Positions 18,237 to 52,166 of a DNA stretch of 64,000 bases are shown here, in pieces. Every line of letters begins with the position of its first letter. Position 1 is the first letter of the stretch. A program made the position numbers and the translations under genes. The DNA comes from Nitrosospira sp. NpAV (lineage in GTDB: Bacteria; Pseudomonadota; Gammaproteobacteria; Burkholderiales; Nitrosomonadaceae): contig NZ_JXQM01000019.1 of assembly GCF_000832065.1 (NCBI RefSeq), forward strand, positions 62,001-126,000, in the 5' to 3' direction. The notes below the pieces were generated by a model that ran no database searches, had not been told where the DNA came from, and saw only the letters and a program-made list of their open reading frames with translations.

Positions 18237-18308
18237 TTAGAGCAATAGCGGATTCACAAAACCGTCGCGTACCCGGTAACGCGTGTTTCCCAAGTGCCCG
18301 CCAGGCTG

Positions 18309-18731: not shown

Positions 18732-18737
18732 TCCCGC

Positions 18738-20450: not shown

Positions 20451-20546
20451 GGGAAGAGCCTTATTTTGGTTGTTGTTGTATCCCATGATTAGATAATTAA
20501 ACGGCATCCCCGGATAGCTGTAAGATTTTACAGGTTGAGAAAATTC

Positions 20547-21092: not shown

Positions 21093-23319
<2,227 letters not shown>

Positions 23320-23327
<8 letters not shown>

Positions 23328-24774: not shown

Positions 24775-24909
24775 AATGATGGGGGCGAGGCTCATATATC
24801 CACGTTGGTATTTATGCAGAATAAATATGACGATCAATCATATGGAACCCGTATATCAAACCAGCGCCAAACCGATAGTCCGTAACGCAAATAAGCACAA
24901 GGAGAAGCC

Positions 24910-25191
24910 ATGGACAGCATGACCCTCATCGCAATCGTATCGATTCTCGCGGCTGGTCTGACGATCAGCTTGGGCGTGATAGGCCCGGCGCTGGGCGAAG
25001 GCAAGGCGGTTGCCACGGCGCTAACATCTCTGGCGCAGCAACCCGATGCCTCCGCGACCATCACCCGCACGCTATTCGTCGGCCTGGCGATTATCGAGTC
25101 GCTGGCAATTTACTGTTTCGTGGTTTCCATGATCCTCATTTTTGCTAATCCGTTCTGGAATCACGTTATTGCACAGGCCGCGGGAAAATAA
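24910..25191 (+). CDS. atpE: N-ATPase subunit c (two-glutamate, Na+ type)
   Basis: 93 residues, two helices. Helix 1 carries GPALGEGKAVA with Glu30; helix 2 carries GLAIIESLAIY with Glu63, Ser64 and Tyr68. The ES-x-x-x-Y set in helix 2 plus the extra Glu in helix 1 is the sodium-binding arrangement described for N-ATPases. AAGGAGAAGCC precedes the ATG. The polar loop (LAQQPDASATITR) is typical. Confidence 0.95.
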   Translation: MDSMTLIAIVSILAAGLTISLGVIGPALGEGKAVATALTSLAQQPDASATITRTLFVGLAIIESLAIYCFVVSMILIFANPFWNHVIAQAAGK

Positions 25192-25194
25192 TCC

Positions 25195-26121: not shown

Positions 26122-26136
26122 AATCTTCTTAAACCC

Positions 26137-27735: not shown

Positions 27736-28682
27736 GCCAGACCACTGCAAGTTTGCGCCGGAAAATCGAGGGTGCCAGGGATCTGCGCGCGGTGGTTAGC
27801 ACCATGAAGGCGCTGGCGGCGGCGAGCATCGGACAATACGAGAAGTCGGTGCATGCGCTGGATGGCTATTACCGTACCGTGCAGCTTGGTCTGAGCGTCT
27901 GCTTCCGCACCGGCGGACCCGCGGCAGCGGCGGCGGAACGGAAAAAAGATATCGGCATGACAGGCGCGGTGGTGTTCGGTTCGGATCAGGGGCTGGTGGG
28001 GCAATTCAACGATGTCGTGGCAGATTACGCCGCCCAGACACTGGCGGCTCTGCCCGGCAACAAAAAAATCTGGGCGGTAGGCGAGCGCGTGCATGACCGG
28101 CTGGCGCTTACAGGCACGCCGTTGGCGGGACTTCTCGCTGTTCCGCTTTCGGTCAAGGCCATTGCCCCGCTGGTAGGACATATCCTGCTGCAAATGCTCG
28201 CGCCGGAACGGGTGGACGGCGATGTCCAGTGGAGAAGGGAGGATAGGGACAAGATATCGAAGCTTTATCTTTTCTACAATAACTCGAAGTCAGGAGCCGT
28301 ATATGCGCCCATCCATCAGCGCCTGTTGCCCCTGGATGCTGCCTGGCGGCACGATCTGGCCAAACTCCGCTGGCCAACTAGGAACCTGCCGGAGGTAATG
28401 GGTGGCGGTCCCGCGACGCTACAGGCGCTTATCCGGGAGTACCTGTTCGTCTCGCTTTTCCGCGCCTGCGCCGAATCCCTCGCAAGCGAGAATGCAAGCC
28501 GCCTGGCGGCGATGGAACGTGCCGAAAAAAACATCGATCAATTGAGTGCGGATCTTCACCAGACGTTTTATCGCCTGCGCCAAAGCAAGATCGACGAGGA
28601 ATTGTTCGATGTCATAGCAGGTGTGGAAGCGCTGGCGGGGACGCAGCAGGCAATACGGCCGGTGGATAGAGGGGATGGATGA
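27732..28682 (+). CDS. atpG: N-ATPase subunit gamma
   Basis: 316 residues. The N-terminal helix [24 protein letters not shown] and the C-terminal helix [45 protein letters not shown] form the rotating shaft. The central globular part ([17 protein letters not shown]) is conserved. It is the last gene of the operon and is followed by 470 bp of spacer. Confidence 0.94.
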
Positions 28683-39444: not shown

Positions 39445-40650
39445 TTAATCTTTGACAGGAACGCGGAAAATAGCGCCACCATCAGCCTGCTTCGCCGACT
39501 TCTCGCGCCTTGCCATGAACCCGACCAAGCCCAGACCGGCAAGCATCAAGGCATAGGCTGCGGGTTCGGGGATGGGGGCAATGGCGACGATCTGCCCGTG
39601 GTTATTTATTGCCAACGCCTCGGTTAGAACAATTCCGGTTGGCAAACTCACTAGCGAATTGAGGTCCGTCATGCCCTCACCATTGGGGCCGGTGATGAAA
39701 GCATGTTGACTTCCGTCCGCAGTGTCGGAATGTCCAACCACCTGCCCAGCGTCGTTGATGCCCCGAGCGAAACTTTGACTTCCACCCAGCGTATCCAGAT
39801 CGGTCATGCCTACACCATTGAGGCCGGTGATAAAAGCGTGGACGTCGCCTCCGGAGGTGCCAGATTCTCCCACCACCCGTCCGGCAGCGTTAATGCCCCA
39901 GGCGAAACTGAAATCACCGCCCAACGTACCGAGATCGGTCATGCCCACACCATCGGGGCCAGTGATAAAAGCATGATAATGACCACTAGTGGTAGAATTT
40001 CCTGCTACCTGCCCGGCATCATTGACGCCGCCCAGAGCGTCACTCGCATCAGCGGAGCTGGGATTGGTGCTTCCGCCCAGCGTACCGAGGTCAGTCATAT
40101 TTACGCCATTGGGGCCGGTGATAAAAGCATGAGTTGTACCACCTCCGGGCAGGTCGGCGCTGGTCGCGCCCGCCACCTGCCCGGCAGCGTTGATGTCATA
40201 AGCGATACTGAAAGCTAGATCGTCCGTCCCCAGCGTACCAAGATCGGTCATACCCGTGCCATTGGCGCCGGTGATAAAAGCATGCTGATTGCCTATGGAC
40301 GTCCGAGCCGCACCTACTACCTGACCGGCAGCGTTGATGCCATAAGCTGCACTGAAATCACCACCCAGTGTACCAAGGTCGGTTATGCCCACACCGTTGG
40401 GGCCGGTGATAAAAGCATGTCTACTTCCTTCAGCGGTGTCGGAATATCCCACCACCTGCCCAGGATCGTTGATCGCCTGGGCGAAAGTATCAGATCCACC
40501 CAAGGTTCCCAGTTTGATGAGCCCCGCGCCGTTGAGATCCACGATATATGATATGTTTTGGCCGAAAACTGGGGACACCAAACTTAGACCAGTGCCCAAG
40601 ACTGCGGCCAAAACAAAATTGCGTACTTGGAAGCAATCGGTGATTTTCAT
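39445..40650 (-). CDS. HAF-repeat PEP-CTERM protein
   Basis: 401 residues from the ATG at 40650; the frame extends upstream without a better start. A signal peptide ends at SPVFGQ. Six copies of a ~40-45-residue unit follow (HAFITGPNGVGMTDLGTLGG ... INDAGQVVG), the extracellular HAF family. The C-terminus is a sorting tag: PEP in IPEPAAYALML, a hydrophobic helix (LAGLGLVGF) and a basic ARREKS cluster, followed by an unusual 14-residue hydrophilic extension. Proteins of this type are cut by an exosortase (not in this window) and end up in the envelope or biofilm matrix. Confidence 0.92.
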   Translation of the reverse strand: MKITDCFQVRNFVLAAVLGTGLSLVSPVFGQNISYIVDLNGAGLIKLGTLGGSDTFAQAINDPGQVVGYSDTAEGSRHAFITGPNGVGITDLGTLGGDFSAAYGINAAGQVVGAARTSIGNQHAFITGANGTGMTDLGTLGTDDLAFSIAYDINAAGQVAGATSADLPGGGTTHAFITGPNGVNMTDLGTLGGSTNPSSADASDALGGVNDAGQVAGNSTTSGHYHAFITGPDGVGMTDLGTLGGDFSFAWGINAAGRVVGESGTSGGDVHAFITGLNGVGMTDLDTLGGSQSFARGINDAGQVVGHSDTADGSQHAFITGPNGEGMTDLNSLVSLPTGIVLTEALAINNHGQIVAIAPIPEPAAYALMLAGLGLVGFMARREKSAKQADGGAIFRVPVKD

Positions 40651-40786
40651 GACGGGCGCGCTCCTGCAATAGACGCTACCTAAAAAGTTTAGCCATGCTA
40701 TCAAAGTTAGATGATAGATTTGATGTCAAGGCAGAGAAGAGATTTCATTTTTGGCAGGAGCACGGAAAATAAAGTCGCCCGTCATC

Positions 40787-41932
40787 CTATTTCGCTGACT
40801 TCTCGCGCCTTGCCTTGAAGCCGACCAGGCCCAGGCCGGCAAGCATCAAGGCATAGGCTGCGGGTTCGGGAACAACGCCAATAACGATAACCTGTCCCGA
40901 ATTATTAATGGCAAGCGCCTGCGTTAGAACATACCCATCCGGCAGACTCACCAGCGAATTCAAGTCCGTCATGCCCTCGCCATTGGGTCCGGTGATAAAA
41001 GCATGTAGGGAGTGTTTGCTTTCAGCAGTGTCGGAATATCCTACTACCTGCCCGGCATCATTGATGTCAAGAGCGCTACTGTAATCACCACCACCCAGAG
41101 TACCAAGATCTGTTATGCCTACACCGTTGAGGCCGGTAATAAAAGCATGAGGGTTGCCTTCGGTTGGGTAGAAATTCCCCACTACCTGCCCAGTGGCATT
41201 GATGCCTGAAGGTGCGCTGTTGCCTTCACCCAGAGAGCCGAGAATGGTCATGCCCGCGCCATTGGGGCCGGTGATAAAAGCCTGATAGTTTTCTGTCCCG
41301 GTGTTGACAGTTCCCACCACCTGCCCGGCATCGTTGATACTAGAGGCTCCACCCTGATATGCTCCATCTGGAACACCAAGATCGATCATGCCGACGCCAT
41401 TGGGACCGGTGATGAAAGGATGATAATCACCTCCAGCGGTGGCGGAAAATCCGACCACCTGCCCGGCATCGTTGATGTCCTGAGCATTACTGTAATCACC
41501 GCCCAAAGTGCCGAGATCGGTCATGCCTACGCCGTTGGGGCCGGTGATAAAAGCATGTGTAAAAAATGTGGAGCCTATGAGTACGGGGGAATAGCCCACT
41601 ACCTGACCGGCAGCATTGACGCCACGGGCATAACTCTCACCTCCGCCAAGCTCACCGAGATCTGTCATGCCTATACCGTTGGGGCCGGTGATAAAAGCAT
41701 GAACGCGATTTCCCTCCGTCAGGGATTCTCCCACTACCTGACCGGCATCGTTAATGTCGCTTAAGCTAAAGTAAGATCCATCCAGGCTTCCCAGCCGGGT
41801 TAGTTCCCCGCTGTTGGAATCGACGATGTATGATATTTGTTGGCCGAAAGCCAGGGGCATGAAACTTAATCCAGCGCTCAAGGTTGCCGCCAGGACCAAA
41901 TTGCGGATTGGGAAACCATAGGTAACGTTCAT
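40787..41932 (-). CDS. HAF-repeat PEP-CTERM protein, second copy
   Basis: 381 residues; GGGGAG lies upstream of the ATG. A signal peptide ends PLAFGQ, followed by ISYIVDSNSGELTRLGSLDG and six HAF units with more divergence than in the neighbour (HPFITG, QAFITG variants). The tail is VPEPAAYALMLAGLGLVGFKARREKSAK, a standard PEP-CTERM without extension. It shares long stretches with the neighbouring copy, so the pair arose by tandem duplication. A structural or adhesive surface role is inferred from the family. Confidence 0.92.
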   Translation of the reverse strand: MNVTYGFPIRNLVLAATLSAGLSFMPLAFGQQISYIVDSNSGELTRLGSLDGSYFSLSDINDAGQVVGESLTEGNRVHAFITGPNGIGMTDLGELGGGESYARGVNAAGQVVGYSPVLIGSTFFTHAFITGPNGVGMTDLGTLGGDYSNAQDINDAGQVVGFSATAGGDYHPFITGPNGVGMIDLGVPDGAYQGGASSINDAGQVVGTVNTGTENYQAFITGPNGAGMTILGSLGEGNSAPSGINATGQVVGNFYPTEGNPHAFITGLNGVGITDLGTLGGGDYSSALDINDAGQVVGYSDTAESKHSLHAFITGPNGEGMTDLNSLVSLPDGYVLTQALAINNSGQVIVIGVVPEPAAYALMLAGLGLVGFKARREKSAK

Positions 41933-42160: not shown

Positions 42161-43798
42161 TTAGAAGGCAATTTGATATTGCAATACAAATTGACCTTTG
42201 CTGGAGGTTCTCAGTATTTCACCGGAGCTGGTAGTGTTGAATACGGGTCTATTCTGATAATCAAAGGTAATTTTGCTGTTGTGTCCTTTTATAAGCCAAT
42301 TGATGCCCACGTTGAAAACATTCATTTGGTTGTCCAGGCGTTCATAATTGGCGCTCATCAGCGAGACATAGGGCATCAGCTGGCCATTATTCGAACCGAG
42401 CAAATCCTTGTCCATGAGATACCCGATCTGGCCGTACCAGACATCTCCCGTGCCGAACATGGGAAAGGCATTGCCCGGGCCGTTGAAACTTCCTCCCGTG
42501 GGACTCGTGCCGCTGGCGGGATTCATTGCGCCATTGTTGCGAATATAACCCGGGCCATAGTCCAGGTTAAAATAGCCAAGATATGCGGAGATAGCCGTTT
42601 CCTTTATCCGGTCGACCGGTGCATCCAGATAGGCAGCGACCGACCAGAAGTTGATGTCGTGAAATCTTAGGTTATCCGGAGTGCCCGTCGAGGTGGCATT
42701 CTTTTGCGTGATGAAACCTGCTTCGAGATTCAATACGCTCTTCTTCCCGAGATAGGTTCCCTGCATAAAGGTATTGGTCATGGGTTCCGTATCCCAGAAA
42801 TTCCAAACAAAGAATCCCTGGTATTGCTTTGTATTGTTATTTGCAAAGGTTGCATTATCTGGAGAGAGAGGAGCGGGGGGCTGACCGGTAGTCGATATGG
42901 AGAAAGGATCGCTTGCAATCACACGGTAATTTAATTTTCCCACTTGCCCCCTTAAATAGAGGCTCAGTTTTCGGCTGAACAGGTCAGTCTGGTCTACCGT
43001 GGCCTGGGCAAAAATAGGAAGATCCATTGTCATGCTTGTCGCAGCGCTCGGATTGCTAAACCGGGAAAGCCCGTTGGCGATGGTAAGCCCGCCCCCTAGA
43101 ATGGCTTGGTGACCTTCTGTCAGCCGCAATTCACCAAAAGCGTCATGAAAGTAGGCTGAGATATGTCTATTGCCATTCATTTGAGACAGGAAGTTGAAAT
43201 TATTCATGCCGTACTGGGTATAAAAATATACACGATCGGTAAGCTGGCCCTGCAAGACGAAGCGGGTCCGGCGAAGCCCGATATCGGTGGTATCGTCCAC
43301 CGGTTTGTCGAGCACCAATGATCCGGGATTATTTTGTTCATACCGAAGCCATGTTTGATTTAACAGCCCGAACTTGATGTATTGGCTCCCATCCTCGTTC
43401 AAATTGAATTTAAAAGGATCCCTCTCCTTCCAGTTTGCATAAGCAAATCCCTTTGGAGATTCGTCGGTTTTTTGATTGCCTGGTGTCGATACCGTCGTCT
43501 GCTTGCTTTCCCGGCTTTGCTTGAGTGCGGCACCGCTGTCTGTCGCAGAGGTTACGCCTGAAGCCGCAGGGGGCGCCTGTTGCACGGGAACATCGGCGAT
43601 CTTCTGAAAAGATCCCATGCGAACCCTGCCTGTGCCCGGTTCCGAATAAATTTGCTTGGTCTGGGTATCGACATATAAATCGATGGCTGCCTCTTGAAGG
43701 GATCCGACGGCAGGATTTGCGGGCTCCCTGCTATGCGCAGGGTGAGGGGATAGGATGATGAAGAGAAGAAACGAAACCAGCGGAAGATTTAATTTCAT
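42161..43798 (-). CDS. Outer-membrane porin-like beta-barrel
   Basis: 545 residues from the second ATG (MKLNLPLVSFLLFII), which begins a clean signal peptide ending AHS. A ~110-residue linker rich in Q, S and P precedes a barrel with alternating hydrophobic strands and aromatic girdles (FGLLNQTWLRYEQNN, GLRRTRFVLQGQLTDRVYFYTQYGMNNFNF, YGQIGYLMDKDLL) and a terminal phenylalanine (FVLQYQIAF), the outer-membrane insertion signal. It resembles phosphate-selective porin O/P-like proteins; substrate unknown. An inverted repeat lies just upstream. Confidence 0.85.
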   Translation of the reverse strand: MKLNLPLVSFLLFIILSPHPAHSREPANPAVGSLQEAAIDLYVDTQTKQIYSEPGTGRVRMGSFQKIADVPVQQAPPAASGVTSATDSGAALKQSRESKQTTVSTPGNQKTDESPKGFAYANWKERDPFKFNLNEDGSQYIKFGLLNQTWLRYEQNNPGSLVLDKPVDDTTDIGLRRTRFVLQGQLTDRVYFYTQYGMNNFNFLSQMNGNRHISAYFHDAFGELRLTEGHQAILGGGLTIANGLSRFSNPSAATSMTMDLPIFAQATVDQTDLFSRKLSLYLRGQVGKLNYRVIASDPFSISTTGQPPAPLSPDNATFANNNTKQYQGFFVWNFWDTEPMTNTFMQGTYLGKKSVLNLEAGFITQKNATSTGTPDNLRFHDINFWSVAAYLDAPVDRIKETAISAYLGYFNLDYGPGYIRNNGAMNPASGTSPTGGSFNGPGNAFPMFGTGDVWYGQIGYLMDKDLLGSNNGQLMPYVSLMSANYERLDNQMNVFNVGINWLIKGHNSKITFDYQNRPVFNTTSSGEILRTSSKGQFVLQYQIAF

Positions 43799-43828
43799 GA
43801 AACGGCCTTTGAAAAAAGAGAGAGCAGT

Positions 43829-43860
43829 AATATCCATATGGTATAATGCATGTGGATATT
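43829..43860. promoter_or_regulatory. Inverted repeat AATATCCA/TGGATATT upstream of porin
   Basis: Arms at 43829-43836 and 43853-43860 are perfect 8-mers separated by 16 A+T-rich bases. They lie 31-62 bases upstream of the porin ATG, a normal place for an operator overlapping the promoter. No regulator gene is adjacent. Confidence 0.4.
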
Positions 43861-44225
43861 ATGCGCGTACTATCCCCGATAGTTAAACAATAAAAATTCA
43901 TTTGTTTATCTTTTTTCAAGGTAACCATGGCAAGCCAATTAATTATTTAATTATTTGATTATCAATGATATTTCTGATAGTTACAGGCGAGCGAATTTTA
44001 TCAAGAATGGATATTCTGTCGTCTATCCATTACATGACATATAAGTATAATATAAGGCTGATCGCCAGGACGTCTCGCCAGCGGATGGATCTGGCACGGC
44101 TTCACGGAATGCGCCCGGGGCAATGGGCAGTTGAAACGTAAAATGTAATTTTTGATTGTTAATCCATAAAAGGCCTCCTTACACCGAAACAAGTGGTTAA
44201 AACAGCATGCGGGTTTACCGGGCCA
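43861..44225. other. A+T-rich spacer upstream of porin
   Basis: 365 bp, strongly A+T-rich between 43870 and 44060, with no supported gene. It probably holds the porin promoter and the end of the upstream transcript. Confidence 0.4.
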
Positions 44226-44510
44226 TCATGGCGCTAGGTCGCGCAGGTATGTCCAGGGATAAATCCCGCGATCATGCCCGTCATTGAAAATAAACTGCAC
44301 GCCATACATTCCGGCGGGATGAATTCCACTGATGCGCAACTGGGGTGATACCACGTCAGTCGCCTTTCCTTGCAAGCGATATGATTTGCAGTGCGCACAC
44401 TGACACCGGGTACGTAAAAAAGCATGAGTGAAAAGTTGCCGTTTGCCGTCATTCCACAGAATCTCCAGCGTGCCATTTGGAATATTGCTGGAAATGGTTT
44501 TGACCTGCAT
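44226..44510 (-). CDS. DUF971 protein
   Basis: 94 residues. The pattern LEILWNDGKRQLFTHAFLRTRCQCAHC ... PAGMYGVQFIFNDGHDRGIYPWTYLRDL is the DUF971/gamma-butyrobetaine hydroxylase N-terminal-like fold, with a CxCxxC-type cysteine set that can bind metal. The family occurs alone or fused to Mrp/ApbC iron-sulfur carriers. The ATG overlaps the TGA of the HEAT-repeat gene (TGATG), so it belongs to the same operon. A role in iron-sulfur supply to the cluster's ferredoxin and flavoprotein is a guess. Confidence 0.85.
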   Translation of the reverse strand: MQVKTISSNIPNGTLEILWNDGKRQLFTHAFLRTRCQCAHCKSYRLQGKATDVVSPQLRISGIHPAGMYGVQFIFNDGHDRGIYPWTYLRDLAP

Positions 44511-45511
44511 CACAAATTCGTCCTTGATCTTTCACGTGCATGCCTTGCTGCTTCGCGATCGGTTGCCCGGATTTGGGCAATGGAAAGGCGGACGGATTTG
44601 CGTACTTCCGGATCCGGGTCGGTTTCAATTTGCTCAAGCGCAGGCAGGGCACCCGCAAAGCCTATCTCCCCCAGCGCCAGGGCTGCCTCCTTGCGCAAAT
44701 TGCTGATCGGGTGGTTTAGTGTTTCGATCAACGCAGGCACTGACCGAGGATCCCCAAGGCGGCCCAGCGCACGCGCTGCACATAACCGGACTTGCCAATA
44801 GTTGTCGCTTAAAGCGCCAATCAATTGTTCGACAGCATCCTTCAATCGAAGCTTGCCAATGGTTGCTGCTGCTTCTTCGCGCACTTGCCATGCCGAATCG
44901 GATAAGCCGCTCAGTAATGCTGGCAATGCTGCATCCCCGGATGCAAACCCTATGGCGCCTATGGCGGCTCGCCGTACTTCGGCTTCAGTATCGTTCGCAG
45001 CGAGGGCTGCTAAAGCGGGCAATGCCTGCGGCTGTTTCAGATAACCCAGCACCGCCACCGCCTCTCGCCTGACTGTCGCATCTTCATCAATCAGCCCAGT
45101 CAACGCAGGCTCGAAACTATTCATAACTCGTAGTTCGCGCAGTGCGCGAAATAGTGCGGCACGTACGGATGCCTCCGGGTTTGCGAGATGGGGAAATATG
45201 AACTGTGCCGATTCCTGGTTTTTAAGGTCATGCAGGCTACGGGCTGCGGCTTGCCTGACGGAAGGATCGGGGTCATCCAGAACGGCGATCAACGCGGCAA
45301 CACTCATACTATTTTCAAACGCCTCAAGCGCCTTGGCCGCCTCGGCACGGACCGCAGCCACGGGGTCCTGTAAACTGGCGACGATAAAAGGGACGTGGTC
45401 ATCGCCTTCAAAGTCGGCAATGTCCAGCAATGCAATGCGGCGCACCTCGCTATCGGCTGCGTTTAGCCGCATCTGAATATCCTGTAGTTCCGGGTTGTCC
45501 TGGGGATTCAT
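44510..45511 (-). CDS. HEAT-repeat protein
   Basis: 333 residues from the ATG preceded by GAGAGGAT. Almost the entire length consists of ~31-residue HEAT/PBS-lyase units (DPDPSVRQAAARSLHDL, DEDATVRREAVAVLGYL, DTEAEVRRAAIGAIGFA, SDSAWQVREEAAATIGKL, SDNYWQVRLCAARALGRLGDP, NHPISNLRKEAALALGEIG, ETDPDPEVRKSVRLSIAQI), about nine in all. Such solenoids act as scaffolds or, in PBS lyases, help attach bilins. Position between the ABC genes and the DUF971 gene suggests a cluster-specific assembly factor. Confidence 0.9.
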   Translation of the reverse strand: MNPQDNPELQDIQMRLNAADSEVRRIALLDIADFEGDDHVPFIVASLQDPVAAVRAEAAKALEAFENSMSVAALIAVLDDPDPSVRQAAARSLHDLKNQESAQFIFPHLANPEASVRAALFRALRELRVMNSFEPALTGLIDEDATVRREAVAVLGYLKQPQALPALAALAANDTEAEVRRAAIGAIGFASGDAALPALLSGLSDSAWQVREEAAATIGKLRLKDAVEQLIGALSDNYWQVRLCAARALGRLGDPRSVPALIETLNHPISNLRKEAALALGEIGFAGALPALEQIETDPDPEVRKSVRLSIAQIRATDREAARHARERSRTNL

Positions 45512-45542
45512 ATCCTCTCGCATGAAAATAGGGGTACGGGTA

Positions 45543-46382
45543 TCAGGAGATCACTCCAAGGGGAGTAAGGCGTTGCAACGGAAAGTCGGCACTTTGCGTA
45601 TGCAACAATTCGAGGCAATGACGCTTGAGTTGGATGAAACGATCCGACGTCAGCAATTCGGGCTTGCGCGGGCGCACAAATTCAAGAACGGTTTGCTCGA
45701 TGATCCGGCCGGGACGAGGGCTCATTATCAGAATCCGGTCGGCCAGGAACAGCGCCTCGTCAATGTCATGCGTGATGAACACAATAGTGGTCTTGATGCT
45801 TTCCCATACATCCAGCAACAGCTGTTGCATCATCATGCGCGTTTGCGCATCCAGCGCACCGAAAGGTTCATCCATCAACATTACCTTCGGATGATTAATC
45901 AGTACACGCGCGATCTCCACCCGCTGCTGCATTCCACCTGACAGCTGGAAAGGATAGTGTTGCTCGAAGCCTGCAAGCCCCACGAGTTCCAATAGCTCAC
46001 CTGCGCGTTTATGGCGTTCGGCACGCAATATCCCCTTCATTTTGAGACCGAAAGCAACATTGTCCATGACGGTTTTCCACGGAAACAACGTGTGTTGCTG
46101 AAAAACCAAACCGCGTTCCGGATGCGGGCCATTGAGCGGCAGCGAATCAACGTGAATACTGCCGTCACTAGGCTGCAAATGGCCGGCGAGCGCGCCTAGC
46201 AGCGTCGATTTGCCGCAACCGGAAGGGCCAAGCAGGCAAACAAACTCCCCGGGCTTGATTGAAACCGACACGTTTTGTACCGCCTCAAACGCCTGGTCGC
46301 CAGAGCCCAGCTGGATATAGAGGTTTTTAATTTCTATATGGCCTTGTATGCCTGGAGAGGCATGATTTGCGACCGGGCTCAT
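45543..46382 (-). CDS. ABC transporter ATPase (nitrate/sulfonate/taurine type)
   Basis: 279 residues. Walker A LLGPSGCGKSTLLGALAG, signature LSGGMQQRVEIARVL, Walker B VMLMDEPFGALDAQT and the switch histidine in VFITHDIDEALFLADR are intact. The FAVQNVSVSIKPGEFVCL start and the PGRI.... tail are those of TauB/SsuB/NrtD-type importers. The start overlaps the permease stop by four bases. It energises uptake of an unknown small anion. Confidence 0.95.
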   Translation of the reverse strand: MSPVANHASPGIQGHIEIKNLYIQLGSGDQAFEAVQNVSVSIKPGEFVCLLGPSGCGKSTLLGALAGHLQPSDGSIHVDSLPLNGPHPERGLVFQQHTLFPWKTVMDNVAFGLKMKGILRAERHKRAGELLELVGLAGFEQHYPFQLSGGMQQRVEIARVLINHPKVMLMDEPFGALDAQTRMMMQQLLLDVWESIKTTIVFITHDIDEALFLADRILIMSPRPGRIIEQTVLEFVRPRKPELLTSDRFIQLKRHCLELLHTQSADFPLQRLTPLGVIS

Positions 46383-47215
46383 GATTTCCTTATTTCGGAG
46401 GCGTGCCAGGGCATCAACCTATTTCCCAGTTTCTTGACCAATACGCTGCTGCCCATGCCCAGCAAACCGATCAGCAACATGCCAACCACTATATCTGCAT
46501 AATTTTGGATCGTATAAGAAGCCCAGGTGTAGTAACCAATACCGAACTGGCCCGCTATCATTTCCGCCGTTACGAGACAAAACCACGCCGTTCCCATGCC
46601 GATGGATAATCCGGTAAAAATGCTGGGTGCCGCCGCGGGCAGAATCACCTCGGTAAATACCGCGCGCCGGCCACTTCCAAGACTGCGGGCGGATGCAATC
46701 AGTCTTGCATCGACCGCTTCAACGCCATGGATAGTACTGAGCAGAATGGGAAACAGTGCGCCGGTAAAAGTGATGAATATCATCGACAATTCGGAAGACG
46801 GAAACATGAGAATCGATAGCGGAATCCAGGCGACTGCAGGGATCGGTCTTAGCATTTCCAGAGGCGGAAGCAAAGTATCTTCTGCAAAACGTGAACGGCC
46901 GATCATTAATCCTAGTCCGATGCCAATGACCGCGGCCCCCAGAAAACCGCTAAAAACGCGTGACATGCTGGCCGTCAGGTGGGATAGCATTTTCTGGGAT
47001 TCAAGCAGCTCCCGGGCAGCCGCCAATACTTCCGCGGGTGAGGGTACATTCTGAAAAGTTATTACCCCCAGATCCATATGTCTGGTGGAGGCCAGATGCC
47101 ATAACAGAACGCAAATAGCAATCGATGACACGCGCCGCAGCCTACGGCCAGCTTCGCGCCGGTTGAGATCTATTCTTTCAGCAGGGATGGAGTCAGCTTC
47201 CGTGATGCTACCCAT
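46379..47215 (-). CDS. ABC transporter permease (TauC/SsuC type)
   Basis: 278 residues with six predicted membrane helices. The cytoplasmic coupling loop is near GVEAVDARLIASARSLGSGRRAVFTEVILPAAAPSIFTGLSIGMG, the EAA motif of binding-protein-dependent permeases. AAGGAGCGCACTC precedes the ATG. It lies between the ATPase and the binding-protein genes. Confidence 0.94.
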   Translation of the reverse strand: MGSITEADSIPAERIDLNRREAGRRLRRVSSIAICVLLWHLASTRHMDLGVITFQNVPSPAEVLAAARELLESQKMLSHLTASMSRVFSGFLGAAVIGIGLGLMIGRSRFAEDTLLPPLEMLRPIPAVAWIPLSILMFPSSELSMIFITFTGALFPILLSTIHGVEAVDARLIASARSLGSGRRAVFTEVILPAAAPSIFTGLSIGMGTAWFCLVTAEMIAGQFGIGYYTWASYTIQNYADIVVGMLLIGLLGMGSSVLVKKLGNRLMPWHASEIRKS

Positions 47216-47227
47216 GAGTGCGCTCCT

Positions 47228-48685
47228 TTATTGGGCAATGACAGGCGCCAGGGACGACTTGGCGAGAGGCCCGGCGATCCCGGATGCAAAGACCGCCGTA
47301 ATGTTTTTTGCGGCGCCGAAATTAAGCACCTTGCCTCCGTTTGCCCGAGCCCAGGCATCCGCATCGTTTTTGAGCAAGAACCCATTCACCGCATTGTTGC
47401 CGTGAACAAACCAGGCATCGTTCGCGAGCAACTTGATGCCGCTATTGCCATCCTGCACATATACCACCCGGATCTGCTTACCTGCTTTCTCGAGTGCGTT
47501 CAGATCGGCAAAGGCGGATTCCGGCGATGCATAGTGCCGTACTAGGGGCTCGCCTTTAACCCAGATTTGTGCGGCGCGTTTGCTGTCGACGACAGGTTTT
47601 CCGGTATGGGCGTCTTTCGTGACAAGCGGTAGCTGGGCATAATTCTTCAGCTGTGCTTCATAATCGAGTCCGGCATGTCTGAAAGCGGCACGGATATATT
47701 GATCGTCAATGAATTTCTCTATATCGAGGTCCGCGGTCGTGCGCTTCATCAACCGCAAGGTCTCGATTGAGGTCTTTACCGCCTTCCGGTATTCTGGTTT
47801 CCAGGTGAAATCACGTGTTTGCAGCCCGAGTGGGCCATGAAACAGATAAATAACTTCGGCCTCGATACCGGTCACCTTGGAGATAAGTTCGCTGTATTTC
47901 TCCGGTTCTGCCGCAAGCAGCCTATCTGCTTCGATTGCTGCGCGCAGGAAGGCGATGACGATTTCGGGATGTTTTCTTGCATATTCAGCATCCACCAGGG
48001 TGCCATGCATGGTGGGCGCGTTGGCCTGCGATCCATCATAGACTTTTCTGGCAAAACCCCGATAAGGGTACAGTTCGGCGAAAGGCACAAAATCGGCATG
48101 CGCATCGATCTTATTGGCTTGGAGCGCGGAGCCCGCAATTTCCGGCGACTGCGTGATGATCGTTACATCTTTATCCGGATCCCACCCCTGTTGCGCGACT
48201 GCTCGAAGCAGCATGCCATGCGAGGTTGAAGCAAATGGGACTGAAATAGTTTTGCCTTTCAACTCAGCCAGAGACTGGACAGGAGAAGATTTGGGCACCA
48301 CGATGCCGTTGCCGCTGCCTGTGATACTGCCGGACAGGACGCTAATAAAAATGCTCTGTTTGCCTGCTTTCTGAAATGCAACGCCATTGAACGAACCTGG
48401 GAAATCGGCCATCGAGCCGATATCGAGCTTTCCCGCCACCATTTCGTTGGTTAGCGGGGCACCGGAGGTAAAGTTTTTCCATTGGATATCGTATTGGGTA
48501 TCCTTGTATTTGCCGTCATGGGGCAAATACTTTTCCAACAGCTTCAATTCACGGATCAGTGTGCCCCCGGCGGCGCAATTTATGGTGGTGTCTTGGGTGC
48601 CGATAGCGATGCGGAGAATTTCGGCGTGGACAGGACCGGCGAATAGGATGCTTAACCCCAAACCGATCAACCTCTGTAATTTCAT
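47228..48685 (-). CDS. ABC transporter substrate-binding protein
   Basis: 485 residues from the ATG after GGAGGGAAAT; upstream in-frame codons are not needed. The signal peptide ends near FAGPVHA. The NMT1/TauA-like fold is seen in RIAIGTQDTTINCAAGGTLIRE ... NEMVAGKLDIGSMADFPG ... LKGKTISVPFASTSHGMLLRAVAQQGWDPDKDVTI. It is longer than usual (about 320-350 residues), with a C-terminal extension (RAAQIWVKGEPLVRHYASPESAFADL ... GNSGIKLLANDAWFVHGNNAVNGFLL). The ligand is not evident; sulfonate, taurine, nitrate and aromatic sulfonate are all plausible. Confidence 0.92.
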   Translation of the reverse strand: MKLQRLIGLGLSILFAGPVHAEILRIAIGTQDTTINCAAGGTLIRELKLLEKYLPHDGKYKDTQYDIQWKNFTSGAPLTNEMVAGKLDIGSMADFPGSFNGVAFQKAGKQSIFISVLSGSITGSGNGIVVPKSSPVQSLAELKGKTISVPFASTSHGMLLRAVAQQGWDPDKDVTIITQSPEIAGSALQANKIDAHADFVPFAELYPYRGFARKVYDGSQANAPTMHGTLVDAEYARKHPEIVIAFLRAAIEADRLLAAEPEKYSELISKVTGIEAEVIYLFHGPLGLQTRDFTWKPEYRKAVKTSIETLRLMKRTTADLDIEKFIDDQYIRAAFRHAGLDYEAQLKNYAQLPLVTKDAHTGKPVVDSKRAAQIWVKGEPLVRHYASPESAFADLNALEKAGKQIRVVYVQDGNSGIKLLANDAWFVHGNNAVNGFLLKNDADAWARANGGKVLNFGAAKNITAVFASGIAGPLAKSSLAPVIAQ

Positions 48686-48775
48686 ATTTCCCTCCAGAAT
48701 TATTGACTTCAGTCCACAGCACAATGTTTCGCTACGTGGCGAGATACGAATGAAATAGAACTTAAGACCTCCGTG

Positions 48776-49009
48776 CTAGCGAAGCAGATAGGGAATATCG
48801 ACCGTCACCGCACCGGTGGGACAATCCTTCTCACACGGCATGCAATACCAGCATTCGTCGAATTTCATATAGGCCTTCCCCTTGGTAAAATCGATCGCCA
48901 GTACGTCGAGTGGGCAGACATCTACGCATACGGTGCAACCTTTGTCCGCGATGCATAACTCTTCATCGATCCGTACGGGAAGACTGGCAGGAATAAAAGC
49001 TGTTGGCAT
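48776..49009 (-). CDS. AprB-like 2x[4Fe-4S] ferredoxin
   Basis: 77 residues. Two cluster motifs are visible: CIADKGCTVCVDVCP (Cx5Cx2Cx3CP) and CWYCMPCEKDCP (Cx2Cx2Cx3CP), as in the beta subunit of adenylylsulfate reductase, but the AprB C-terminal extension is missing. AAGGAG precedes the ATG. It follows the flavoprotein gene by eleven bases and is likely its electron-transfer subunit. Confidence 0.92.
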   Translation of the reverse strand: MPTAFIPASLPVRIDEELCIADKGCTVCVDVCPLDVLAIDFTKGKAYMKFDECWYCMPCEKDCPTGAVTVDIPYLLR

Positions 49010-49020
49010 ATTCTTTCTCC

Positions 49021-50778
49021 TTAAATCGCGGCGGTGCTCGCTTCTGTCATTTTCTCGGCGGGAGCATTTTTTTGGATACGCATTCCCTGGTACGCCGCTT
49101 TCTCGTATTCATCCAGGTCGATGATGTAAGGGTCTATGGGGCGCTTAAAACAGGCCATCTTGTTGTCAATCTTTTTCAGTTGAACATGCACAAACCACTC
49201 GCGATCGTCCCGCTCGGGATAATCGATGCGGTTGTGATAAAGACCCCATCGGCTTTCGGTTCGATACAGCGATGCGCGCGCCGCCATTTCAGCGCAGTCG
49301 CGGATGGCATGCACCTCCAGCGCACGCATCAGTTCGTGCGGATCGCGCGCCCACAACATTTCGAGATCCCCTCTGATTTCTTCGAATCGAGTCAGGCCAA
49401 TTTCCATCTTCCGGGTGACTTTGGGAGGTTGCAGGTAGTCGTTGACCATGCGGCGCAATTTGTATTCGACTTGCGATGGCGGCAGCCCGTCGCTCCGCAG
49501 CAAGGGTGCTCGCACTCTTGCGGATTCCGCATCCACCTGCATTTGATCAACATCTGCAAGGGGGGTATCGGCGCAATAGCGGGCGGCGCTTTCGCCTGCG
49601 ATTTTTCCGTAGACAAAGGCTCCCAGCATGTAATTGTGCGGCACGCATGCCAGATCGCCGGCGGCATACAATCCTGGAACCGTGGTTTCGCCATGTTCGT
49701 TGATCCAGACCCCCGATGCGGAATGGCCACTGCATAGACCAATTTCCGAAATATGCATTTCAACCATTTGCTTGCGGTAATCGGTTCCACGCCCCTCATG
49801 AAAACGGCCACGACTCGGCCGTTCATTGGTATGCAGAATAGTTTCGATGGTACCGATGGTCTCGTCCGCGAGATGGTTCAACTTCAAGAATACCGGTCCA
49901 TCGCCCCCTTCCAGTTCACGATAGAACTCCATCATCATTTGTCCGCTCCAGTAATCGCATTCGATAAAGCGTTCACCTTTGCTGTTGGTGGTATAACCGC
50001 CCATTGGGCCCGTGACATAAGCGCAGGCGGGTCCGTTGTAATCCTTGATCAAAGGGTTTATCTGAAAGCATTCGATACCGCTCAGTTCGGCTCCGGCGTG
50101 ATAGGCCATGCTGTAGCCGTCCCCTGCATTGGTCGGATTCTCATACGTGCCGAACAGATAACCCGATGCGGGTAGACCCAGTCGTCCCGCCGCTCCGGTG
50201 CAAAGAATTACCGCCTTTGCGCGGATGATATGAAATATGCCAGTGCGGCAATCGAATGCCATGGCCCCGGCAACGCGTCCATCGGTTGCCATCAGCAGGC
50301 GCGTGGCCACCAGGCGATTGGTAATACCAACGCGGGTGCGCTTCAACCGCCTGTACAACACTTTTTTAATATCATGGCCTTCCGGCATGGGCAGTACATA
50401 CGTTCCCATGTGGTGCACTTTGCGCATTGCATAATCTCCGGTCTCATCCTTTTCAAATTTCACTCCCCACCGATCCAGTTCTTCAATCATGAGAAAACTG
50501 TTTTGCGCATAGGCCATTACGGTTTTCTGGTTAACGATTCCGTCATTGGCGATAGTGATTTCCTTCACGTACTGTTCCGGCGTGGCATGGCCCGGGACCA
50601 CCGCGTTGTTCAAGCCATCCATACCCATAGAGATAGCGCCGCTACGTTTCACGTTGGCTTTTTCCAGCAGCAGTACATGCAATGCCGGATTGGCCTCCTT
50701 GGCCTTGACAGCCGCCATGGGACCAGCGGTGCCGCCTCCGATGATTAATATGTCTACCGTGCGAGTTTCAGATTGCAT
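49021..50778 (-). CDS. AprA-like FAD-dependent oxidoreductase (fumarate reductase/succinate dehydrogenase flavoprotein family)
   Basis: 585 residues. FAD site DILIIGGGTAGPMAAVKAKEA; further FAD contacts in KRSGAISMGMDGLN, AVILCTGAAGRLG and VPGLYAAGDLACVPHNYMLGAFVYGKIAGESAARY. The segment GGYTTNSKGERFIECDYWSGQMMMEFYREL is like the AprA/SdhA capping domain. Paired with the two-cluster ferredoxin it looks like an AprAB-type enzyme, but whether it reduces APS or another substrate is unknown. No sat/qmo genes are present. It heads the operon after the GntR regulator. Confidence 0.9.
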   Translation of the reverse strand: MQSETRTVDILIIGGGTAGPMAAVKAKEANPALHVLLLEKANVKRSGAISMGMDGLNNAVVPGHATPEQYVKEITIANDGIVNQKTVMAYAQNSFLMIEELDRWGVKFEKDETGDYAMRKVHHMGTYVLPMPEGHDIKKVLYRRLKRTRVGITNRLVATRLLMATDGRVAGAMAFDCRTGIFHIIRAKAVILCTGAAGRLGLPASGYLFGTYENPTNAGDGYSMAYHAGAELSGIECFQINPLIKDYNGPACAYVTGPMGGYTTNSKGERFIECDYWSGQMMMEFYRELEGGDGPVFLKLNHLADETIGTIETILHTNERPSRGRFHEGRGTDYRKQMVEMHISEIGLCSGHSASGVWINEHGETTVPGLYAAGDLACVPHNYMLGAFVYGKIAGESAARYCADTPLADVDQMQVDAESARVRAPLLRSDGLPPSQVEYKLRRMVNDYLQPPKVTRKMEIGLTRFEEIRGDLEMLWARDPHELMRALEVHAIRDCAEMAARASLYRTESRWGLYHNRIDYPERDDREWFVHVQLKKIDNKMACFKRPIDPYIIDLDEYEKAAYQGMRIQKNAPAEKMTEASTAAI

Positions 50779-50835
50779 GAATAGCCTGGTTTGAGATCAA
50801 TGTATCCAGAGAGATTGCGCCTGAAGCAGGAGAAG

Positions 50836-51636
50836 CTACCGCAGCGGATCGTTGGCCTGGCTCTGGGGCGCGGCAGTCGCATCGACCGCGCGCCGCGCGA
50901 TTTGCAAGCGATATTGAAATGCATCTCCGCGAAAATAAAGGTATTCAAAATCCAGCGGCTTACCCGACGCCGTATGGGTAAGCCGTTCCATGCGCAATAC
51001 AGCGGAGCCTTCTTCTATCTTTAACTGGTGCGCCAAGTCATCGTCAGCCAGCATCGCGTCAATCTGCAAGTCCGCATATCCCAATGCGATGCCGAAATCA
51101 TTTTCAAGCACCAGGAATATATCGCGCGTGGGAAGATCGAAGCTACGCAAACGTTCGCCAATATCCTCCATCAGGTAAGTGACCTCCATTGATAAGGGTT
51201 CACGGTTGAGATAGCGCACGCGCCTGATTTCACTTACAGGTGTACCGGTTTCGAGCTTCAGTTTCTTTGCGACGATGGCCGAAGCAGGAACCGACTTATG
51301 GCTGATTACTTTGTTGTAAATCTCATAGCCCATACGCAGCATCGCCTCGGCAAATCCCTCGAGTTGCGTCAATTCCTGAAAGGCCTTGGGTTTGGCGACA
51401 AACGTTCCTTTACCGGGAATCCTGAAAATCAGCCCTTCATTTTGAAGATCACTCAAAGCCTGGCGAACGGTGATTCGGCTTACATCGAATAAGTTGCTCA
51501 TCTCGCTCTCGGATGGCAATTTTTGGTGCGCCTTGTACGTACCTTCCAGGATTCGTTCCCTCAAGATATCTTTAATCTGCGTATATAAGGGAAGGGGCGA
51601 CGGTATGAGGGTTAAAGAACTGATCAATGGTTTCAC
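50836..51636 (-). CDS. GntR-family (HutC/UTRA) transcriptional regulator
   Basis: 266 residues, GTG start. The N-terminal winged helix is LYTQIKDILRERILEGTYKAHQKLPSESEMSNLFDVSRITVRQALSDLQNEGLIFRIPGKGTFVAK; the UTRA ligand domain follows (ELTQLEGFAEAMLRMG ... VRYLNREPLSMEVTYL ... AVLRMERLTHTASGKPLDFEYLYFRGDAFQYRLQI). It is the first gene of the minus-strand cluster and probably controls it in response to the imported compound. A palindrome CATTACAGGTAATG lies 17 bases upstream of the start. Confidence 0.93.
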   Translation of the reverse strand: MKPLISSLTLIPSPLPLYTQIKDILRERILEGTYKAHQKLPSESEMSNLFDVSRITVRQALSDLQNEGLIFRIPGKGTFVAKPKAFQELTQLEGFAEAMLRMGYEIYNKVISHKSVPASAIVAKKLKLETGTPVSEIRRVRYLNREPLSMEVTYLMEDIGERLRSFDLPTRDIFLVLENDFGIALGYADLQIDAMLADDDLAHQLKIEEGSAVLRMERLTHTASGKPLDFEYLYFRGDAFQYRLQIARRAVDATAAPQSQANDPLR

Positions 51637-51653
51637 CTATTAATATAACTTGT

Positions 51654-51667
51654 CATTACAGGTAATG
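51654..51667. promoter_or_regulatory. Palindrome CATTACAGGTAATG, candidate GntR operator
   Basis: Perfect 6-bp arms CATTAC/GTAATG around AG. Its place right upstream of the GntR gene suits autoregulation. No second copy was spotted before the flavoprotein gene. Confidence 0.45.
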
Positions 51668-51784
51668 CTGCGTTGCTACAGCATAGTAGTGCGGGATCAA
51701 ATGGATTGAAACCAACATAAAGTGATTTAGTTATTACTAAAACAGATATTGGACTGACCTGCCCTACAAAATAGGAGTCCTTCG

Positions 51785-51912
51785 GAATTGCGGCGGTTAC
51801 GCCAACTGCAGGAAGAAACGGAAGAAGAAAACGGCAAATTGAAGCGGCTGGTCGCAGGCTCGAAGCCTGGACTAGCCCATGCTGCAGGATGTGCGGTCAG
51901 AAAAGCGCTGAA
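51785..51912 (+). pseudogene. IS3-family transposase OrfA remnant
   Basis: One frame reads ELRRLRQLQEETEEENGKLKRLVA, the coiled-coil leucine-zipper region of IS3-family OrfA (commonly LRRLRQLEEENRKLKRLVADL). After a frameshift another frame gives PMLQDVRSEKR, matching the MLQDVLRKK region. The rest of the element and its ends are gone. Confidence 0.7.
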
Positions 51913-52070
51913 GCCTTTCCGCTGTGTGGCTAAAGTTAATTTAAATAATTTTTGAGCTTTAGTGGAATTTCTTTATTATAGGGCTGGCAATTTATCATTT
52001 TTTTGTGAAATAATTGCAACTGAGGGTTGATACGCCATTCCCGGCTGCATTACCCTCCTCATGTCGTCTT

Positions 52071-52166
52071 AGGACTCTGACCATCCGTCCAGCAGCAGGA
52101 CTCTGAATACCTGTCCATCGGCGCAACGCCGGTTTACACCAAGGACTCTGACCATCCATACAGCAG
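52071..52166 (+). repeat. AGGACTCTGACC repeat cluster 1
   Basis: Units start at 52071, 52097 and 52142, consensus AGGACTCTGACCAYCCGTCC. The middle unit carries the perfect hairpin CGGCG-CAA-CGCCG and the phrase CTGTCCATCGGCGCAA, also found in clusters 3 and 4. Confidence 0.85.

What the first reader, a model, noticed from the sequence alone, without database searches (positions are those of the whole stretch)
44226..51667. Compact GntR-controlled cluster coupling an ABC importer to an AprAB-like flavoprotein/ferredoxin, a HEAT scaffold and DUF971
Eight minus-strand genes run 5' to 3': GntR regulator, AprA-like FAD enzyme, AprB-like two-cluster ferredoxin, binding protein, permease, ATPase, HEAT-repeat protein, DUF971. 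Stops and starts overlap or sit a few bases apart in several joints. There is no sat, qmo or dsr gene, so it is not a standard dissimilatory APS reductase locus. The gene set reads as uptake, then redox conversion in the cytosol, with HEAT and DUF971 proteins as assembly or cofactor-insertion helpers. I know of no named pathway for this set.
Basis: partly seen in the sequence, partly recalled or inferred. Interest (0 to 1): 0.8.

Follow-up and report, generated by a model that had tools for sequence, protein, structure and literature searches.

The report
Organosulfur uptake and desulfurization operon
A compact, mobile-looking gene set shared by quite different bacteria probably imports a sulfur-containing organic molecule and strips its sulfur with a little-known flavin enzyme, which could fill a gap in how microbes get sulfur from organic matter.

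Summary
In detail: eight minus-strand genes at 44226-51636. In this genus a porin (42161-43837) follows in 4 of 4 other carriers found, so the unit has nine genes; its flanks differ in at least one. Flavoprotein, ferredoxin and HEAT protein stay together in Pseudomonadota, cyanobacteria and an actinomycete, where flavoprotein and HEAT are fused. Order, regulator (GntR, Crp, LysR) and Fe-S helper (DUF971 or Mrp/NBP35) vary around that core. The flavoprotein is a discrete family (PRK08275), beside AprA and PAPS reductase rather than SdhA/NadB, but its own clade and without the (P)APS-site residues. NADPH-ferredoxin donor genes are enriched nearby. Sulfur genes are enriched in the 80 closest loci but not significantly in a second set of 17; in five loci the flavoprotein lies downstream of ssuD-permease-ATPase. 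The window's own genome shows no SsuD, luciferase-like or TauD oxygenase. Best reading: uptake of an organosulfonate-type compound and NADPH-fed release of its sulfur by a flavoprotein-ferredoxin-HEAT complex. Substrate and chemistry (reductive cleavage, or electron supply to an oxygenase as proposed for asf) are unproven. A plasmid version is in print as a predicted sulfonate module. New variant of a known kind.

The parts
51648..51663 (.). Operator-like palindrome ACTTGTCATTACAGGT in front of gntR
   Evidence: Strict pattern in 35 of 72 regions upstream of gntR, the window included; only site in the window, 0 mismatches; with 2 mismatches allowed 6 of 100 shuffles reach the same count of 2 strand matches; also in 3 of 4 congeners
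50836..51636 (-). GntR/HutC-type regulator (GntR + UTRA)
   Evidence: Pfam 78.8 and 119.6 bits
49021..50778 (-). FAD flavoprotein, family PRK08275; presumed catalytic subunit
   Evidence: NCBIfam NF006131 1085.6 bits, cut-off 587; best solved relative is the alpha subunit of M. thermolithotrophicus PAPS reductase, 223 bits
48776..49009 (-). 77-aa ferredoxin with 8 Cys (two 4Fe-4S motifs) and a conserved CW54 motif
   Evidence: Pfam; 8 Cys and W54 at least 90% conserved in 88 rows; aligned to AprB
47228..48724 (-). SsuA/TauA-type substrate-binding protein (likely start 48685)
   Evidence: NMT1; TIGR01728 125.2 bits, below its cut-off of 163.5; best solved chains are aliphatic-sulfonate and taurine binders
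47228..47689 (-). NosL-like C-terminal tail of the binding protein
   Evidence: Pfam NosL 23.9 bits, cut-off 24; 28.1 in the Methylocystis homologue; no NosL match listed for the Nonomuraea one; tail filled in 74 of 75 rows
46379..47215 (-). ABC permease, SsuC/TauC/NtrB type
   Evidence: Pfam and NCBIfam, below the curated cut-offs of the named models
45543..46382 (-). ABC ATPase, TauB/SsuB type
   Evidence: Pfam and NCBIfam, below the curated cut-offs of the named models
44510..45523 (-). HEAT-repeat protein
   Evidence: HEAT_2 199 bits; matches positions 655-893 of PRK13800, a flavoprotein-HEAT fusion model; fused in Nonomuraea
44226..44513 (-). DUF971 / GBBH-like_N protein with C37-x-C39-x2-C42
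   Evidence: Pfam 81.2 bits; the three Cys at least 90% conserved in 62 rows
42161..43837 (-). Outer-membrane porin, ninth gene of the cassette in this genus
   Evidence: Weak match to porin ExtI, 47.9 bits, cut-off 150, no Pfam match; downstream of the cluster in 4 of 4 congeners

Best explanation
A sulfur-scavenging cassette. The GntR protein controls its own operon through the palindrome at 51648-51663 and is released by a substrate-related signal (inferred). The porin and the SsuA-type binding protein/ABC importer bring an organosulfonate-type compound into the cytosol (importer type shown, substrate inferred). There the flavoprotein, with its 8-iron ferredoxin and held by the HEAT protein, carries out the key step. 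Electrons come from NADPH through a ferredoxin-NADP reductase or a second ferredoxin (gene association shown, direction inferred), and the flavin uses them to release the sulfur, most likely as sulfite (inferred from the AprA/PAPS-reductase kinship and from exporter genes in a few loci). Sulfite then enters cysteine synthesis. DUF971, or Mrp/NBP35 in cyanobacteria, serves Fe-S maturation (inferred from the replacement and the known role of Mrp/NBP35).
For: Core conservation: in 115 loci pooled the ferredoxin is seen in 114, HEAT in 113 and the SBP in 98; three phyla. Flavoprotein-HEAT fusion in line with GntR, ferredoxin and ABC genes, with an SsuD-like gene beyond it on the other strand. In L041 and L043 ssuD-permease-ATPase runs directly into the flavoprotein (the L041 contig ends there); in the Methylococcales loci L035, L038 and L042 an SfnB-like gene and one 280-residue ORF lie between, then flavoprotein-ferredoxin-HEAT. 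Sulfur probes taken only from annotated plasmids hit 25 of 80 loci against 3 of 60 controls, p = 8e-5. Electron-donor genes (FNR, FdxA, PRK06567-like) hit 21 of 80 and 8 of 17 against 0 of 60, p = 4e-6 and 1e-6. Of 17 annotated loci read, 8 list a sulfur gene beyond the cluster's own importer. Nearest solved relatives are PAPS and APS reductases. The own genome (99.86% complete) has no match to the SsuD, Bac_luciferase or TauD models, so here the cassette cannot merely serve those oxygenases.
Against: No biochemistry or expression data. With independent probes the second locus set shows no significant sulfur enrichment: 3 of 17 against 3 of 60, p = 0.12; the 7 of 17 rests on a YeiH probe taken from a cluster locus. 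55 of 80 loci show no sulfur probe hit, and 7 of 17 annotated loci list no sulfur gene. Exporter genes are few: TauE annotated in 2 loci, YeiH in 6 of 115. The (P)APS-site residues are gone, so the flavin-sulfite route does not simply carry over. 14 of 18 cluster-bearing genomes have SsuD, as do 18 of 20 without the cluster, so SsuD does not discriminate. The own genome holds one ring-hydroxylating Rieske protein that could be an oxygenase partner. The named hosts are, as I recall, aerobic or oxygenic, which fits an oxygen-using route as well. The binding pocket could not be modelled.
Confidence: 0.47

Rival explanations
1. Same organosulfur role, but the flavoprotein-ferredoxin pair only delivers electrons to a separate oxygenase that breaks the C-S bond, as proposed for AsfAB in aromatic desulfonation.
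For: [quoted passage not shown] ssuD upstream of the flavoprotein in L035, L036, L038, L041, L042 and L043, and within the stretch held in L030, L114 and L163: 9 of 115 loci. A Rieske-domain protein follows the cluster in P. sprentiae.
Against: The own genome lacks SsuD, luciferase-like and TauD proteins, and G012 has no SsuD-model match either. A SdhA/AprA-type flavoprotein normally holds the active site (family knowledge). The columns aligned to the AprA pocket are nearly invariant in 28 sequences, but these are all at least 73% identical to the first, so this is weak.
Confidence: 0.25
2. The imported compound is not a sulfur source (for example a nitrogen or phosphorus compound), and the sulfur neighbours are incidental.
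For: NMT1/NrtA-type binding proteins serve many ligands (family knowledge); 55 of 80 loci show no sulfur probe hit and the second set is not enriched; GNAT and amidase genes adjoin some loci.
Against: Enrichment in the 80 loci, the ssu arrangement in five loci, and SsuA/TauA as best matches of the binding protein.
Confidence: 0.18
3. An APS or PAPS reductase with an attached importer.
For: Nearest solved relatives; clade next to AprA and MtPAPSR; AprB-like ferredoxin.
Against: W234, R265, R317 and Y95 equivalents changed in 14 of 14 members while MtPAPSR keeps W, R, R and Y; no cysC/cysD/cysN listed in the 17 annotated loci read (gene tables incomplete), unlike the true relative in Ilyobacter; own genome has two PAPS_reduct-family proteins.
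Confidence: 0.04
4. A succinate dehydrogenase or fumarate reductase relative using a dicarboxylate.
For: Automatic annotation name.
Against: Distant from the own SdhA and NadB; the SdhA stretches SRDVVSR and NRLGTNS are replaced (alignment); no membrane subunit among the eight genes.
Confidence: 0.02

Closest known systems
asf (asfRABC) aromatic sulfonate system
   Same: Substrate-binding protein, ABC transporter, reductase and ferredoxin in sulfur scavenging (PMC4267179 and PMC2864759, passages)
   Different: The CH34 pair that most likely is AsfA/AsfB (549-aa FAD protein + 111-aa ferredoxin beside ABC genes) is 24% identical over 415 residues and outside this clade. Here GntR not LysR, plus HEAT and DUF971, and no SsuD in the own genome
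Predicted sulfonate cargo of Acidithiobacillus caldus plasmids (pTcM1)
   Same: Same flavoprotein-ferredoxin-HEAT trio with GntR; [quoted passage not shown]
   Different: Called APS reductase there, which the residues here do not support; no mechanism, spread or HEAT role in the passages seen
MtPAPSR, PAPS reductase of Methanothermococcus thermolithotrophicus
   Same: FAD alpha subunit plus two-cluster ferredoxin-like beta subunit; highest-scoring solved relative
   Different: Its pocket W/R/R is not kept here; different neighbours
Dissimilatory APS reductase AprBA
   Same: Flavoprotein plus two-cluster ferredoxin; N74 and H398 equivalents kept
   Different: Own clade; APS-site residues lost; gene order flavoprotein then ferredoxin, the reverse of L110/L111 (L110 matches A. 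fulgidus AprA at 656.6 bits); 77-aa ferredoxin against AprB chains of 150 and 166
PRK08275 / PRK13800 protein families (NCBIfam)
   Same: Over the cut-off for PRK08275; PRK13800 spans flavoprotein and HEAT, and such a fusion is seen in Nonomuraea
   Different: Both are named only 'fumarate reductase/succinate dehydrogenase flavoprotein subunit'
Isethionate reductase IsrBHDK
   Same: Precedent for anaerobic release of sulfite from a sulfonate for assimilation (PMC11423573, abstract and outline)
   Different: Nitrogenase-like and radical-SAM enzymes, unrelated proteins

Membership tests
PRK08275 flavoprotein family (NF006131) | Score over the curated cut-off of 587 bits | tested here: met
   1085.6 bits
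AprBA dissimilatory APS reductase | AprA equivalog score over cut-off (TIGR02061, 641.75) | tested here: not met
   166.7 bits
AprBA dissimilatory APS reductase | APS-binding residues (Af W234, R265, R317, Q145; numbering and roles recalled except Q145) | tested here: not met
   Y, L, gap and H in 14 of 14 family rows; the Q145 column shifts to V in another alignment
AprBA dissimilatory APS reductase | sat/qmo/dsr genes alongside | tested here: inconclusive
   None among the ten window proteins scanned or listed in 17 annotated loci with incomplete gene tables; not searched genome-wide
MtPAPSR-type PAPS reductase | Pocket W/R/R | tested here: not met
   Y, L and gap
MtPAPSR-type PAPS reductase | Location beside cysC/cysD/cysN | tested here: not met
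   Seen in the Ilyobacter relative, not listed in the 17 annotated loci of this family
SdhA/FrdA | Place in the SdhA/FrdA clade | tested here: not met
   Split from own SdhA and NadB, 100/100; long branches noted
asf aromatic sulfonate system | Reductase + ferredoxin + binding protein + ABC transporter | tested here: met
asf aromatic sulfonate system | AsfA orthologue | tested here: inconclusive
   P. putida S-313 AsfA was not available; the CH34 candidate is another family, its identity as Rmet_4334/5 inferred from position and neighbours
asf aromatic sulfonate system | LysR-type AsfR activator | tested here: not met
   GntR in the window; a LysR protein beside the cluster was identified in Pseudanabaena
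asf aromatic sulfonate system | Growth on aromatic sulfonates lost on mutation | not testable with these tools
   Needs experiment
ssu/tau sulfonate oxygenase operons | SsuD or TauD oxygenase | tested here: not met
   No match in the own genome

The most novel reading that the evidence does not exclude
The flavoprotein-ferredoxin-HEAT complex is a self-sufficient reductive desulfonase: an AprA-fold enzyme re-tooled from sulfuryl-nucleotide to organosulfonate chemistry, which uses NADPH-derived electrons and no oxygenase to release sulfite from an imported C-S compound. It would have spread as a cassette across at least three phyla and be the only sulfonate-cleaving system in organisms such as the window's host.
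Probability: 0.27. Interest if true: 0.85.

Novelty: new variant of a known kind. Interest (0 to 1): 0.58.

Why it matters
Soil sulfur is mostly organic and sulfonates are a large share (PMC4267179 and PMC10441942, passages seen). The known routes named there use the Ssu monooxygenase, with asf as an addition for aromatic sulfonates. This family carries an enzyme of another kind, for which I saw no assay in the listings. It comes with a clear gene set to express, a predicted operator, and hosts without SsuD in which one deletion would be decisive. It also bears on annotation: the annotated plasmid records read call it fumarate reductase/succinate dehydrogenase flavoprotein, and one paper's legend calls it APS reductase.

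Tried and rejected
Dissimilatory or assimilatory APS/PAPS reductase: rejected on residues, clade and context. SdhA/FrdA: rejected on clade. Direct identity with asf: tested on the C. metallidurans CH34 megaplasmid said to hold asfRAB (PMC2864759, passages). No close relative is there. A first candidate at 895 kb proved to sit by DctA and NuoF-like genes. A second at 928 kb, with a 111-aa ferredoxin and ABC genes, is the better AsfAB candidate and is a different family. No locus tags were shown for this record, so that assignment is inference.

Metal uptake through the NosL-like tail: considered; no Cys, His or Met of the tail reaches 80% conservation.

On rechecking, the sulfur enrichment was recomputed with probes from annotated plasmids alone: it holds for the 80 closest loci (25 of 80) and fails for the set of 17 (3 of 17, p = 0.12). 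For that reason I lowered the best explanation from 0.50 to 0.47, the novel case from 0.28 to 0.27 and the interest from 0.60 to 0.58, and raised the non-sulfur rival from 0.15 to 0.18.

A search for recurrent neighbours by clustering gave the PRK06567-like reductase (14 loci) and an ORF in 6 loci that looks spurious. A search for a shared inverted repeat first ranked a coding motif; the operator came out on the second look. A palindrome CATTAC-N2-GTAATG seen first was dropped. An IS3-like reading at 51758-51952 seen by eye has no Pfam match. Paper searches by the gene names: one search found 0 papers, one search listed 25 of 530, one search listed 15 of 605, one search listed 1; none of the titles was on this set, and passages of two P. 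phymatum papers were not either. Structure prediction did not run, so no fold search was made.
Full report
What is there. Families: GntR+UTRA regulator; FAD_binding_2/Succ_DH_flav_C flavoprotein; a 77-residue ferredoxin with eight cysteines; an NMT1-type binding protein; ABC permease; ABC ATPase; HEAT protein; DUF971. NCBIfam gives the flavoprotein 1085.6 bits for PRK08275 (cut-off 587), 305 bits for PRK06854, an adenylyl-sulfate reductase alpha model (cut-off 557), and 166.7 for AprA (cut-off 641.75). It also matches positions 13-578 of PRK13800 at 901.2 bits (cut-off 1196), and the HEAT protein matches positions 655-893 of the same model.

The unit is larger than reported. Of 101 genomes searched in the host's family, 5 (the host included) carry the flavoprotein over the cut-off, all in its own genus of 22 genomes. 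In the 4 other carriers the porin 42161-43837 follows on the same strand. In L186 the match to the window runs from 42161 to 51751 at 90.6 and 93.2% identity, and the rest of the 20 kb held (2.1 kb on one side, 8.2 kb on the other) matches nothing in the 64-kb window, so its flanks differ. It looks like an accessory, probably horizontally acquired, nine-gene cassette.

Regulation. A 16-base palindrome stands before gntR. The strict pattern C[CT]TGTN4ACA[AG]G occurs in 35 of 72 upstream regions examined, the window included, against 60 hits in all in 2.74 Mb of held loci, most of these loci included. In the window it occurs once, without mismatch, at 51648-51663; with two mismatches allowed 6 of 100 shuffles give as many matches, so the single site is notable mainly for its place and conservation. 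In 37 of 72 regions the pattern was not found, so the operator differs or is absent in other branches. Of four congeners three have it; in L185 neither a gntR match nor the site was found in the stretch held.

Spread and core. A capped scan of species genomes gave 592 stretches encoding a relative at E <= 1e-3; the best 80 loci were kept. At 60 bits the 80 loci contain ferredoxin in 79, HEAT in 79, GntR in 71, SBP in 67 and DUF971 in 49; some loci are cut by contig ends. In an even draw of 299 Pseudomonadota, the host included, 18 pass the cut-off, and the next best score falls from 1058.9 to 218.4 bits: a discrete family. Annotated plasmids show rearranged versions: DUF971-flavoprotein-ferredoxin-HEAT with a Crp/Fnr regulator and a separate ABC block in rhizobia and Methylobacterium; the window's order in Acinetobacter and Paraburkholderia and, without a DUF971 listed, in Cupriavidus and Aquabacterium; the trio without DUF971 in Methylocystis and A. 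caldus. Two cyanobacteria have flavoprotein, ferredoxin and HEAT followed by Mrp/NBP35 and no DUF971 match. An actinomycete has GntR-ferredoxin-SBP-permease-ATPase and then a 940-residue flavoprotein-HEAT fusion. Such reshuffling with the trio kept together speaks for one complex. The HEAT protein most likely docks on the flavoprotein. DUF971 has three conserved cysteines, and the Fe-S carrier in its place suggests ferredoxin maturation.

Electron supply. M. radiotolerans carries FdxA and ferredoxin-NADP reductase in line with the cluster; A. caldus pTcM1 carries FdxA and a 1153-residue reductase resembling PRK06567, below its cut-off. With those proteins as probes, at least one such gene is found in 21 of 80 and 8 of 17 cluster loci and in 0 of 60 other 20-kb regions. 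This suggests NADPH electrons flow to the flavoprotein, a reductase direction. Most loci have no such gene nearby, the window's among the loci where none was identified.

Sulfur context. Probes for sulfur genes taken only from annotated plasmids hit 25 of 80 cluster loci and 3 of 60 controls, p = 8e-5; in the second set, 17 loci from the phylum draw, they hit 3 of 17, p = 0.12, so the enrichment is not confirmed there. With two further probes from cluster loci themselves (an SsuD from L043, YeiH from L162) the counts are 26 of 80 and 7 of 17. The controls come from genomes of the phylum draw, not from the 80. Of 17 annotated loci read, 8 list a sulfur gene beyond the cluster's own importer, 2 are ambiguous (a TSUP transporter; MsnO8-type proteins) and 7 list none. 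The strongest items: in L041 and L043 ssuD-permease-ATPase runs directly into the flavoprotein; in L035, L038 and L042 the same block is followed by an SfnB-like gene, a 280-residue ORF, and then flavoprotein-ferredoxin-HEAT; in L036 an ssu block stands just before gntR.

The host lacks the usual tools. Searches of the own genome (99.86% complete, 315 contigs) found no SsuD, no Bac_luciferase protein and no TauD, with controls ringing in 8, 10 and 1 of 14 genomes. It has two PAPS_reduct-family proteins and, among three Rieske matches, one ring-hydroxylating protein elsewhere. Of 18 cluster-bearing genomes 14 have SsuD over the cut-off; of 20 without the cluster, chosen by me from the same draw, 18 do. 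So SsuD is not needed for the cluster to be kept. Of the 4 without it, 3 (G174, G281, G012) have an FNR gene by the cluster.

The enzyme. Best solved relative: MtPAPSR alpha subunit (223 bits), then AprA (142), then SdhA (98). A tree of 26 proteins places the family apart from a 100/100-supported AprA+PAPSR clade, both away from SdhA and NadB; the tool warns that long branches make the joins unsure. The alignment shows AprA N74 and H398 kept in 14 of 14 members; W234 to Y, R265 to L, Y95 to E and loss of R317 in 14 of 14; E141 to K/R. Residue roles are recalled, except Q145 and the loop discussed in PMC10322725 (section 9 read). MtPAPSR keeps W, R, R and Y. So the pocket is neither APS- nor PAPS-type. 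Those columns are nearly invariant in 28 sequences, but all 28 are 73% or more identical to the first. The ferredoxin shares the CW-x-C motif of AprB with a tryptophan conserved in at least 90% of 88 rows; by position it may match the Trp42 proposed for electron transfer in MtPAPSR, which I infer.

The binding protein. It is SsuA/TauA-like with a C-terminal tail that Pfam places just under the NosL threshold, and over it in Methylocystis. The tail is filled in 74 of 75 related proteins, the other being cut by the locus end. In plasmids it is found in 38 records; of the 30 listed, 27 are among the 40 flavoprotein records listed. Its role is unknown.

Relation to known systems. The closest in kind is asf, described as binding protein, ABC transporter and reductase/ferredoxin needed for aromatic sulfonates beside ssu. 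On the CH34 megaplasmid said to hold asfRAB, the best candidate pair is a 549-residue flavoprotein with a 111-residue ferredoxin beside ABC genes: similar architecture, 24% identity, another branch with a very long stem. The present system works like asf in outline but is not shown to be asf. [quoted passage not shown] In the listings of my searches by gene names (41 papers listed in all) no title was on this set; that library lacks most subscription journals.

Conclusion. A sulfur-scavenging role is the best supported reading, less firmly than one locus set alone suggests; the chemical step is open between direct reductive release of sulfite and electron supply to an oxygenase. The missing oxygenases in the host, the electron-donor genes and the enzyme's kinship favour the first; the aerobic life of the hosts (recalled) and the ssuD neighbours allow the second.

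Noticed in passing
L161:9995-15149: In Nostoc the flavoprotein and ferredoxin genes are separated by two HAD hydrolases, a methyltransferase, a GNAT and a VOC protein, and the set lies near metX and an O-acetylhomoserine aminocarboxypropyltransferase gene; these may act on the same substrate.
   Followed up: no
L162:6661-8676: Pseudanabaena has a LysR regulator fused to an NMT1-like domain similar to the cluster's binding protein, as if the regulator senses the imported ligand.
   Followed up: partly
L089:11922-14107; L161:17579-19426; L057:16299-19353: A GNAT gene and an amidase gene lie just after the trio in Methylocystis and Nostoc, and two amidase-like ORFs (by eye) follow it in Pandoraea; a hint that the substrate or product carries an amine or amide.
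   Followed up: no
L116:16767-18557: A Rieske 2Fe-2S protein follows the cluster in Paraburkholderia sprentiae; the window's own genome has a separate ring-hydroxylating Rieske protein (L181:1360-2463).
   Followed up: partly
L035:9122-9964, L038:4621-5463, L042:7089-7931: An unidentified 280-residue ORF stands between the SfnB-like gene and the flavoprotein in three Methylococcales loci.
   Followed up: no
52071-52166: Three imperfect copies of a 25-base direct repeat upstream of the cassette.
   Followed up: no
51758-51952: A decayed reading frame upstream of the operator looks by eye like IS3 OrfA; Pfam finds nothing.
   Followed up: partly
39445-41932: Two tandem paralogous proteins with repeated 'DLGTLGG...AFITGPNG' units and, by eye, a PEP-CTERM-like end, next to the cassette.
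   Followed up: no
21454-28682: ORFs that look by eye like an ATP synthase operon (beta, a, b, alpha, gamma).
   Followed up: no
16145-20507: By eye, a multicopper oxidase and a tyrosinase-like protein in a row.
   Followed up: no
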